DNA of 64,000 bases. Origin: an uncultured Lachnospiraceae bacterium (GTDB taxonomy: Bacteria > Bacillota > Clostridia > Lachnospirales > Lachnospiraceae). Made by a program: the position numbers and the translations under genes. The stretch lies in NCBI GenBank assembly GCA_947631955.1, contig CANRNJ010000017.1, positions 1-64,000 of the forward strand, written 5' to 3'. This document shows positions 6,749 through 37,555 of the stretch, one piece after another. How positions within the stretch are numbered: position 1 is the first letter of the stretch; the number at the start of each line of letters is the position of its first letter. Under the pieces are notes generated by a model, which was not told the DNA's origin, made no database searches, and was given only the letters and a program-made list of their open reading frames with translations.

Positions 6749-7081
6749 TTACGAATATACAATTTCCTCCCTCACAACCTCCCCCACCCATATCCCATTC
6801 AACTTCCTCACCCAGAGCATCTGATCCGCCGCTTTTAACTGTTCCATCACACCTTCTGACGCCGCCATCTGCTCCATCAGCACATCAAACCGCTCCACCT
6901 GCTCCTGCACCGCCAAAAGATGCTCTTTCAGCTTTCCTGTCAGAACCAGTCCCGAATAGATCCCGGAGCGGTGCTCCTTCAGGTACTGCCGCCTCATCCG
7001 TCCGAACTTCCGCAGCTCTCTCCTGTATATATCGGAAGCATGGTCAAACAGTGCTATCATCTGATTTTGCAGTACACGCAT
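6749..7081 (-). mobile_element. tnpV: TnpV-like transposon protein, N-terminally truncated or variant remnant
   Basis: RQYLKEHRSGIYSGLVLTGKLKEHL...EQMAASEGVMEQLKAADQMLWVRKLNGI resembles TnpV proteins of clostridial Tn elements; shorter N-terminus than typical. Confidence 0.7.
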
Positions 7082-7236
7082 ATATATCGTGATACCTCTG
7101 CCACCCGCAATGAATATGCCATCCGAAAATCTTATAAGGAAAAGCTATTCAGCCACCCGATCCCTACGGAATTTACAAAAGCGCACAACAGGTCGTACGC
7201 CCGCATCCATGCCTTTAACCGGCTCATTGCCCGCGT

Positions 7237-7335
7237 AACGAGATGAAACGCTCTCCACGGGTTTCACTCGTTATCGCGACATTCGCCAAATTGACAGGCA
7301 CGCTTGTCAGCTTGGCTCATTGTCCGCATAAAAAA
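7237..7335. repeat. Dispersed structured repeat, copy A
   Basis: AACGAGATGAAAC...GTTTCACTCGTTATCGCGACATTCGCCAAATTGACAGGCACGCTTGTCAGCTTGGCTCATTGTCCGCATAAAAAA; related copies at 32491 and 37119. Confidence 0.9.
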
Positions 7336-7411: not shown

Positions 7412-7672
7412 TTACAGCGTGCTCGATGAAAACAGAGATTTCACATGATCGATCTCGGCCTGCGTCGCCTTGGCGGCGGGCACATAGTATGACTTCTCAC
7501 GCGCGATCTGGTACAGTTCCTCCTGAGATTGCTCGCAGGCGTTGCGGAACTGTTTTAAAGTCTGCTTCAACTCTTTGTTTTCCGTTTGTGCGATCATTTC
7601 TCCAAAGCGCACCAATTCACCGTTGATACCGGTAAGCGTATCCGCTACCATTGTTTTTTCTTCCATCTGCAT
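7412..7672 (-). CDS. Spore coat protein, CotF-like
   Basis: MQMEEKTMVADTLTGINGELVRFGEMIAQTENKELKQTLKQFRNACEQSQEELYQIAREKSYYVPAAKA; RBS GGAAGGAG before this internal ATG favours it over the 7747 start. Confidence 0.7.
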   Translation of the reverse strand: MQMEEKTMVADTLTGINGELVRFGEMIAQTENKELKQTLKQFRNACEQSQEELYQIAREKSYYVPAAKATQAEIDHVKSLFSSSTL

Positions 7673-7750
7673 AATATGAACTCCTTCCACTTGAATGTCT
7701 GTTGCCTGATCCTTGTTTCCCGTTACATAGAAAATGACGCGCAGCATACT

Positions 7751-32487: not shown

Positions 32488-32490
32488 AGC

Positions 32491-32591
32491 AACGAGAGGA
32501 AACAAGCTTTTGCCGGTTTTACTCGTCATCGCGACATTCGCCAAATTGACAGGCAGGCTTGCCAGCTTGGCGCATTGCGCGCGCAAAAAAA
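32491..32591. repeat. Dispersed structured repeat, copy B
   Basis: AACGAGAGGAAAC...GTTTTACTCGTCATCGCGACATTCGCCAAATTGACAGGCAGGCTTGCCAGCTTGGCGCATTGCGCGCGCAAAAAAA. Confidence 0.9.
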
Positions 32592-32613
32592 GAAGCCGCC
32601 ATACCGGCAGCTC
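32585..32613 (-). terminator. rarA terminator
   Basis: Minus GAGCTGCC-GGTAT-GGCGGCTTCTTTTTTT. Confidence 0.75.
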
Positions 32614-32682
32614 CCGATCTTTCTTTTTTCGGATCCGTATATCCCGATCCTTATCCACTGATTTCTGCTTTCCCTGCGCGCC

Positions 32683-34008
32683 TTAATCCCTGTGCGCACG
32701 CTTCCACTCCATTATCGCATCCAGACGCTTTTTCACCTCGGCCTCCCCGCCCTGTGAGGTCGGGTAATAATACCGGCATCCCCGTTTCGATTCCGGCATA
32801 CATTCCATGTTGGTCAGCTTGTCTTCCGTATCATGGGCGTACTGATATCCGGCGCCGTAGGCAAGATCCTTCATCAGCCCGGTCGGCGCATTGCGAAGCT
32901 GCAGAGGGACCGGCTCGTTATTCTCCGTCCGGATATCCCTTTTACAGTTCTCGCACGCCGTATACAACGCGTTTGACTTGGGCGCCATCGCAAGGTAGAC
33001 GGCCGCGTGGGTCAGATGGACGTCGCACTCCGGCATCCCCAGAAAGTGACAGGCCTGATAGGCCGCCACCGCCAGCGGGAGCGCGTGGCTGTCCGCCATC
33101 CCTATATCCTCGCTTGCAAAACGTATCAGCCGTCTGGCTATATAGAGCGGATCCTCTCCGCCCTCCAGCATCCGGAGCATCCAATAGACGGCCGCGTCCG
33201 GGTCGCTGTTGCGCATGGATTTATGCAGAGCGGAGATCAGATTGTAGTGTTCCTCGCCCGTTTTATCATACAAGAGCGACTTGCGGCTTATGCACTGGGA
33301 CAGCCCTTGATCCGTCACCACGATGCTTCCCTCGGATGTGATCTCCCCGTTTAACACCGCCATTTCCAGAGTGTTCAGAGCCGTTCTGGCGTCCCCGTCA
33401 GCGAAGGCGGCGACGGCTTTCAACTGCTCGTCGCTCATCACGACCTTCTGCGCGCCGAACCCTTTTGGACTGGTCAAGGCGTTCTGCAGAAGGCGCACCA
33501 GATCTTTTTCTTCCAGCGCTTTCAGCACAAACACCCGGCAGCGTGACAGAAGCGCGGCGTTTACCTCAAAAGAAGGATTCTCGGTGGTCGCGCCGATGAG
33601 TACGATGCTGCCCTTTTCCACAAACGGAAGAAAGGCGTCCTGCTGCGCTTTGTTGAAACGATGGATCTCGTCCACGAACAAAACGGTGCGCACGCCCATC
33701 CTGCGTCCGGCTTCCGCCTGATTCATAACTTCTTTGATCTCCTTGATCCCGCTCGTCACCGCGCTGAAATTGATAAATTCCGCCTTCGTCCGGCTCGCGA
33801 TGATACTGGCAAGCGTTGTCTTGCCGACTCCCGGAGGCCCCCAGAAGATCATGGAGGAGATCTGGTCCTTCTCTATGATCTGCCGAAGCATCCTGCCCGG
33901 TCCAAGCAGATGTTCCTGCCCGACGAAATCTTCCAGTTTCTGCGGCCGCAGCCGGCTGGCGAGCGGGACCGTTTCTTCCCTGTTGTCAAAAAAAGTAAGC
34001 TGTTCCAT
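32683..34008 (-). CDS. rarA: Replication-associated recombination protein A
   Basis: [68 protein letters not shown]. Confidence 0.95.
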
Positions 34009-37075: not shown

Positions 37076-37118
37076 AATTTCCTCCATTCCGAAGCCTGCG
37101 CTTCTGTCTTTTTTGTGC

Positions 37119-37219
37119 AACGAAATGAAACTCGCTCCGCAGTTTCATTCGTTATCGCGACATTCGCCAAATTGACAAGCAAGCTTGTCAGCTTGGCTCA
37201 TTGTCCGCGTAAAAAAAAA
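37119..37219. repeat. Dispersed structured repeat, copy C
   Basis: AACGAAATGAAACTCGCTCCGCAGTTTCATTCGTTATCGCGACATTCGCCAAATTGACAAGCAAGCTTGTCAGCTTGGCTCATTGTCCGCGTAAAAAAAAA; core differs from copy A at 3 of 66 positions. Confidence 0.9.
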
Positions 37220-37555
37220 CCGTCCCAGACAAATATCTGAGACGGTAATAAACCTTATTATCGCGGTGCCACTCAACTTGACGCGTTTTACAGCGCGCCC
37301 ACCTCCGTTCACATACACCCTGATGCTCCGTGCCGCGGCCGCTTCTTAACGATGCCTCTTTTTAAGGCCGCGTCCCGCTTCTGCATCACGCTATACATGC
37401 CGCATGGATAACGGGTGCGGTTCCCGCCGGCTCCTACTGTTATTTCAGGCCGGCCTCAAAAGTCCATTCAAAACATTCCCCGTGCCGCTTTTCCACCAAC
37501 CGCGGCTCTCTGCGCCGGTTCCCTGTTCCTACTACTCTTTCTCGCAGGTTTCAAC
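37211..37555 (-). promoter_or_regulatory. T-box leader (probable tRNA-Trp specificity) upstream of the trpX-like gene
   Basis: Minus GAGTGGCACCGCGATAA T-box motif, AGAGAGCC...GGTTGGTGGAAA stem I features, terminator CCGTCTCAGATATTTGTCTGGGACGGTTTTTTTTT; candidate specifier TGG in GAATGGACTTTTGAGG (~37464-37466). Confidence 0.92.

What the first reader, a model, noticed from the sequence alone, without database searches (positions are those of the whole stretch)
7237..7335. Dispersed ~100 bp structured repeat family, copy A (three copies in the window)
Copies at 7237-7335, 32491-32591 and 37119-37219 share an invariant 24-nt block ATCGCGACATTCGCCAAATTGACA. Copies A and C differ at about 3 of 66 core positions. 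Each copy can form two hairpins: (i) AACGARATGAAAC...GTTTCAYTCGTT, with a compensatory G-C to A-T change between A and C; (ii) CCAA..TGACARGC..GCTTGTCA..TTGG. All three are in the same orientation and all start directly at the T-run of a minus-strand rho-independent terminator. That suggests a mobile or MITE/REP-like element associated with terminators, or a terminator-linked RNA element. This copy follows the CotF-gene terminator and lies between the core genome and the accessory island.
Basis: partly seen in the sequence, partly recalled or inferred. Interest (0 to 1): 0.72.

Follow-up and report, generated by a model that had tools for sequence, protein, structure and literature searches.

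The report
Terminator-hugging mobile repeat of gut Clostridia
A roughly 96-base DNA repeat that folds into two hairpins has spread through the genomes of many gut bacteria of the family Lachnospiraceae, nearly always landing, in one fixed orientation, directly behind the 'stop' signals that end transcription; it is in no RNA-family library searched and what moves it is unknown.

Summary
Three copies (7235-7332, 32489-32587, 37117-37213, all +) share a structured 94-98 bp unit whose CGCGTAAA end abuts the T-run of a minus-strand intrinsic terminator. The host genome has about 10 longer copies and several short stubs. Covariance models find it in 44/61 genomes of the genus, 99 of 298 sampled genera of the family and a few other Clostridia families, at up to 56 copies per genome. 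Both hairpins are supported by strong covariation across 120 copies. Of 134 distinct copies, 87% have a strong hairpin at the terminator side, against 19% on the far side and 24% at random positions. Orthologous terminators in related species lack it, tandem copies join precisely, and most broken copies keep the terminator-side end. I read it as a non-autonomous mobile repeat targeted to terminators, probably copied in from the T-run. It is not a canonical REP (no GTAG foot), not traceable to IS200/IS605, not a group IIC intron, and not in Rfam 15. No transposase or reverse transcriptase is consistently present or adjacent. Mismatches show no G-U bias on the + strand, arguing against a + strand RNA function. 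New variant of a known kind; mobiliser unknown.

The parts
7235..7332 (+). Copy A: hairpin 1 about 7237-7272, hairpin 2 about 7275-7328, end TAAA merging with the A-run
   Evidence: R2 match 95.3 bits; fold z -5.13
7219..7238 (+). Stub of an older copy (GGCTCATTGCCCGCGTAA) directly upstream of copy A
   Evidence: pattern match at 7223-7237; same arrangement in L100, L104, L106, L108, L115, L116
7330..7360 (-). Terminator (T-run plus GC hairpin) of the Coat_F-domain gene 7412-7747, abutting copy A
   Evidence: sequence; Pfam Coat_F E 7.9e-13
32489..32587 (+). Copy B, more degraded
   Evidence: R2 82.8 bits; lacking in six of eight relatives aligned, remnants in the others
32585..32614 (-). Terminator of the MgsA-type AAA ATPase gene 32683-34008, abutting copy B
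   Evidence: sequence; Pfam MgsA_C E 9e-66
37117..37213 (+). Copy C, best preserved: hairpin 1 about 37119-37153, hairpin 2 about 37156-37209
   Evidence: R2 105.3 bits; fold z -7.05; empty in seven relatives
37210..37245 (-). Attenuator terminator of the T-box leader (T-box 37235-37554) abutting copy C; the element lies between it and the ABC substrate-binding gene
   Evidence: Rfam T-box E 1.9e-20, 90.8 bits against gathering 93; Pfam ABC_sub_bind E 1.5e-51

Best explanation
It is a non-autonomous mobile DNA repeat of 94-98 bp made of two imperfect palindromes. It inserts in one orientation immediately 3' of the U/T-run of intrinsic terminators, so its end 5'-TTTACGCG (minus strand) continues the T-run. 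Shown by computation: dispersal, fixed orientation, terminator target, conserved pairing, absence from orthologous sites, precise tandem junctions, and mostly one-sided loss in broken copies. Inferred: the terminator hairpin and T-run, single-stranded during replication or transcription, are the landing site; the T-run pairs with the A-rich end of a donor copy, and a single-strand copying or joining reaction runs from there into the element, often stopping or skipping early, which would leave stubs and short forms that keep the terminator end. The enzyme (a Y1-type protein acting in trans, or ordinary replication by template switching) is not identified. No host function is required.
For: Own genome about 10 longer copies plus stubs. 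44/61 genus genomes, 100/299 family genomes in 99 genera, up to 56 copies, named isolates such as Mediterraneibacter faecis, Coprococcus comes, Blautia glucerasea and Oliverpabstia. Terminator-side hairpin of at most -10 kcal/mol in 87% of 134 copies against 19% far side and 24% random; with at least 5 T abutting, 62% against 1%. Stubs: 18/20 against 4/20. Covariation: 479 double-change cells against 128.5 shuffled, 92.9% paired against 24-39% when slid. Empty sites for copy C in 7 of 7 relatives aligned, for copy B in 6 of 8. Within-genome identity 0.835 against 0.735 between. Tandem triplet with 94-bp period in G118. Of 40 sampled partial copies, 34 keep the terminator-side end by inspection.
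Against: No mobilising gene found: no element within about 1.5 kb of 30 Y1 loci and no recurrent neighbour gene. Empty-site comparison is between species, in fast-changing intergenic DNA, so exact junctions and any target duplication cannot be read. In eight other genomes the one-sided loss is not clear. Some 'empty' sites carry short T-run-plus-YGYG sequences that could be fully decayed copies.
Confidence: 0.75

Rival explanations
1. A PATE- or REP-like element moved in trans by a Y1 (HUH) transposase of the IS200/IS605/RAYT superfamily: a T-rich target 5' of the element (minus strand), palindromes near both ends, no target duplication. (A sub-mechanism of the mobile reading.)
For: Two near-terminal imperfect palindromes, T-rich flank always on the same side, no visible duplication, too short to code. 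Y1 genes in 12 of 14 high-copy hosts, RAYT-sized ones in G118 and G353.
Against: G325 (single contig, 26 copies) and G226 (18 copies) have no Y1 match; no element copy near 30 Y1 loci; no GTAG foot.
Confidence: 0.3
2. RNA-templated insertion: an element transcript with an A-rich 3' end primed at the terminator T-run by a reverse transcriptase, as in LINE/SINE elements or group IIC introns acting in trans.
For: End anchored at a T-run, A-rich 3' end, truncation at the far end, and the same kind of target as group IIC introns (stem-loop plus T-rich IBS1, PMC10190682).
Against: No RVT_1 match in G005, G118 or G226, which have 26, 37 and 18 copies; RVT_1 is also present in most zero-copy genomes. 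No target duplication seen. No G-U excess on +.
Confidence: 0.12
3. Enzyme-free spread by template switching: a fork stalled at a terminator hairpin pairs its T-run end with the TAAA end of another copy, copies it and switches back.
For: Explains terminator targets, fixed orientation, T-run anchoring, variable far ends, tandem copies, absence of a consistent mobiliser, and palindrome extension such as L232.
Against: Full-length copies have a sharp far boundary at AAC, which random switching back does not predict. Spread across many genera would need repeated horizontal transfer by other means.
Confidence: 0.25
4. A structured RNA with a host function at transcript 3' ends (stability, processing or blocking of antisense transcription).
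For: Strong compensatory pairing in both hairpins; copies inside T-box leaders.
Against: Presence is not conserved at orthologous genes, gene contexts are unrelated, copy number ranges from 0 to 56 among relatives, and there is no G-U bias on +.
Confidence: 0.1

Closest known systems
REP/REPIN elements with RAYT (TnpAREP)
   Same: Short intergenic imperfect palindromes, many copies, lineage-specific sequence, non-autonomous
   Different: No GT[AG]G foot, no associated RAYT, two unlike hairpins in fixed order, fixed orientation to a terminator
PATEs (palindrome-associated transposable elements, IS200/IS605-derived)
   Same: No terminal inverted repeats, palindromes near both ends, no target duplication seen, too short to code
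   Different: Ends not found at any IS200/IS605-type transposase gene examined in the hosts; target is the terminator
Group IIC introns
   Same: Land directly behind terminator-type stem-loops at the T-rich stretch
   Different: No ribozyme domains or reverse transcriptase; about 96 bp; loss is mostly at the end away from the terminator
Pneumococcal BOX, RUP and SPRITE repeats
   Same: Small structured intergenic repeats of uncertain mobility; SPRITE resembles terminators; a BOX copy is combined with T-boxes (PMC3049150)
   Different: BOX and RUP have terminal inverted repeats and target duplications; SPRITE is itself terminator-like, whereas this element lies behind pre-existing, unrelated terminators

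Membership tests
REP/REPIN (RAYT-associated) | GT[AG]G (or CGTC) tetranucleotide at the foot of the hairpin (PMC6006769, PMC3733652) | tested here: not met
   Neither foot carries GTAG/GTGG/CGTC in the consensus of the aligned copies (A3)
REP/REPIN (RAYT-associated) | Copies flank or lie near a RAYT gene | tested here: not met
   0 matches around 30 Y1 loci, including RAYT-sized L285
PATE (IS200/IS605-derived) | No terminal inverted repeats, near-terminal palindromes, too short to code (PMC3119063) | tested here: met
   A3 and A4 alignments and structure
PATE (IS200/IS605-derived) | Ends related to those of an IS200/IS605 transposon | tested here: not met
   No R2 match near 30 Y1 loci; two high-copy hosts without Y1
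PATE (IS200/IS605-derived) | No target duplication | tested here: inconclusive
   None visible, but empty sites are between species and diverged
Group IIC intron | Insertion behind a terminator-type stem-loop and T-run | tested here: met
   87% against 19-24% in controls
Group IIC intron | Ribozyme core and maturase/reverse transcriptase | tested here: not met
   94-98 bp without coding capacity; no Rfam family match
Known Rfam RNA family | Match above gathering score | tested here: not met
   No family at the element in the window, nor at elements in six loci

The most novel reading that the evidence does not exclude
A bacterial counterpart of SINE-like spread in which no dedicated enzyme of its own is needed: the T-run of a terminator acts as primer and the A-rich end of a hairpin element as template, giving fixed orientation, terminator targeting and one-sided truncation.
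Probability: 0.2. Interest if true: 0.85.

Novelty: new variant of a known kind. Interest (0 to 1): 0.62.

Why it matters
It is a widespread repeat family in common gut bacteria that is absent from Rfam 15 and was not found in the papers searched. Its target is defined by the structure of transcription terminators rather than by one sequence, which among mobile elements I otherwise know only for group IIC introns. Insertions behind T-box attenuators place it inside regulated leaders. The apparent lack of a consistent mobiliser makes the question of how small palindromic repeats spread directly testable in isolates such as Coprococcus comes or Mediterraneibacter faecis.

Tried and rejected
Rfam at gathering and relaxed thresholds: no family for the element. 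Y1 transposase neighbourhood: none. Reverse transcriptase presence: no correlation. Recurrent neighbour proteins: the large clusters include ORFs reading through the element itself, the rest look like common superfamilies. Plasmids: no match; viral contigs: no exact core match; phage collection: 11 unannotated human faecal scaffolds with matches, origin unclear. Integron attC was considered from memory (AAC...GTT ends) and set aside because the R' box consensus as I recall it is not met. Strictly 5'-only truncation was considered and softened: 3'-truncated copies exist (L461, L465-L467), and in eight genomes partial hits are few and mixed. Literature searches found no description, but subscription papers and preprints are not held.

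Full report
Observation. The three copies are real. The 24-nt block occurs exactly three times in the window, all on +, and never in 100 shuffles. Copy C folds with z -7.05, copy A -5.13, copy B only -1.16. Each copy ends, on +, in CGCGTAAA (CGCATAAA in A, CGCGCAAA in B) running into the A-run of a minus-strand terminator: that of a Coat_F gene (A), an MgsA-type ATPase gene (B), and a T-box leader (C). In copy C the element therefore lies between the attenuator and the start of an ABC substrate-binding protein gene.

Copies in the genome and beyond. A search of the host genome (3.11 Mb, 25 contigs) gives about ten longer copies and several stubs that keep only the terminator-side 25-30 nt. A covariance model of eight copies finds the element in 44 of 61 genomes of the genus and 100 of 299 of the family, 99 of 298 genera. 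A second model from 45 copies gives 7-56 copies in 14 chosen genomes. Outside the family six genomes of four other Clostridia families match, two of them with nine or more hits. An exact-pattern scan names hosts, including isolates: Mediterraneibacter ([Ruminococcus]) faecis, Coprococcus comes, Blautia glucerasea, Oliverpabstia intestinalis, Roseburia inulinivorans, Frisingicoccus caecimuris, Anaerosporobacter faecicola. One hit in a cyanobacterium has no element around the core and looks like a chance match.

Structure. Over 120 distinct copies 92.9% of pair cells are standard pairs, 479 cells changed on both sides against 128.5 in shuffles, and slid structures fall to 25-39% (that alignment is fitted to the model, but the independent MAFFT alignment agrees). 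Hairpin 1 (AAC...GTT) shifts its bulged A between subfamilies. Hairpin 2 has a fixed base CGCGGCAKTCGCCAA / TTGGCTCRTTGCTCGCG and a freely covarying tip. Noncanonical cells are not biased to G-U on +: 57 A-C against 24 G-U in A3 without one fixed U-G pair, 121 against 120 in A4 including it. Selection for a folded + strand RNA would predict an excess of G-U. A DNA-level palindrome, minus-strand folding or palindrome correction fit better; the copies are related, so this is suggestive only.

Terminator link. In 134 distinct copies the 45 nt beyond the CGCGTAAA end fold to -10 kcal/mol or lower in 87%, against 19% on the far side and 24% at random positions; with at least five T in the abutting 8 nt the figures are 62%, 1% and 1%. 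Terminator sequences differ from copy to copy, so they are targets, not part of the repeat. Four of 134 lie behind T-box attenuators, against 0 of 2249 random positions (the positions are not matched for intergenic DNA).

Movement. Seven relatives aligned at site C keep the T-box terminator and lack the element; six of eight at site B lack it, one has a short remnant-like sequence and one has broken remnants; at site A one relative (G005) has a truncated stub. Copies within a genome are more alike than between genomes (0.835 against 0.735; G118 0.98, G325 0.94). Tandem copies join at CGCG-TA-AAC, including a triplet with a 94-bp period in G118, and a full copy often lies between the terminator and an older stub. 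Forty partial copies were read: 20 chosen as terminator-end stubs, 18 of which have the terminator hairpin; and 20 that matched only the other end, of which 14 proved on inspection to be internal deletions that still run into the terminator-side CG..AAA end, while six lack it. In eight other genomes partial hits are few and mixed, so the one-sidedness is a tendency.

What moves it. Y1 transposase genes are found in 12 of 14 high-copy hosts but not in G325 or G226, and no element lies near 30 Y1 loci. Reverse transcriptase domains are absent from G005, G118 and G226. G226 has neither. No transposase-like gene recurs beside the element. My preferred mechanism is therefore a T-run-anchored single-strand copying or joining reaction at terminators, with a Y1 protein in trans or template switching as the agent; this step is inference.

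Place among known elements. It fails the REP test (no GTAG foot, no RAYT link; PMC6006769, PMC3733652) and the PATE test (no related IS200/IS605 ends; PMC3119063), although it works like them in being a small palindromic non-autonomous repeat. It shares its target with group IIC introns (PMC10190682) but has none of their parts. Rfam 15 holds no match. Limits: the genomes are single representatives per species and many are assembled from metagenomes, so strain-level insertion could not be read; E-values of the models are rough; the literature held is open-access only.

Noticed in passing
L374, L375, L376, L382 (G085): A roughly 150-bp variant with an extra hairpin module (CTCTACACTCCGTTTCGGTCGTTGCTAAACAAGCGCCACTGGCGCTTAGCAACG) inserted in hairpin 2, in about a dozen copies.
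   Followed up: partly
L140-L142 (G010), L150, L151 (G050, G032): 74-84 nt relatives with an unrelated first hairpin and no terminator at the end; G010 has more than ten equal-scoring copies, one just upstream of what looks like a serS start.
   Followed up: partly
L410-L414 (G664): The same hairpin 2 core sits inside a longer repeat with outer inverted repeats (ACCGACCAATTGTTA / TAACAATTGTCGGT).
   Followed up: no
L232 (Clostridium sp. Marseille-P2415): Hairpin 2 tip extended by a long near-perfect palindrome of about 30 bp per arm.
   Followed up: no
window 37235-37554 (minus): T-box leader of an ABC substrate-binding protein gene scoring just below Rfam's cut-off (90.8 against 93 bits).
   Followed up: yes
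window 6749-7081 (minus): TnpV-family transposon-encoded protein next to copy A, fitting an accessory segment there.
   Followed up: no
L422, L423 (MT835472, MT836568): Element copies in unannotated human faecal 'bacteriophage' scaffolds; phage genome, prophage or bacterial contamination not resolved.
   Followed up: partly
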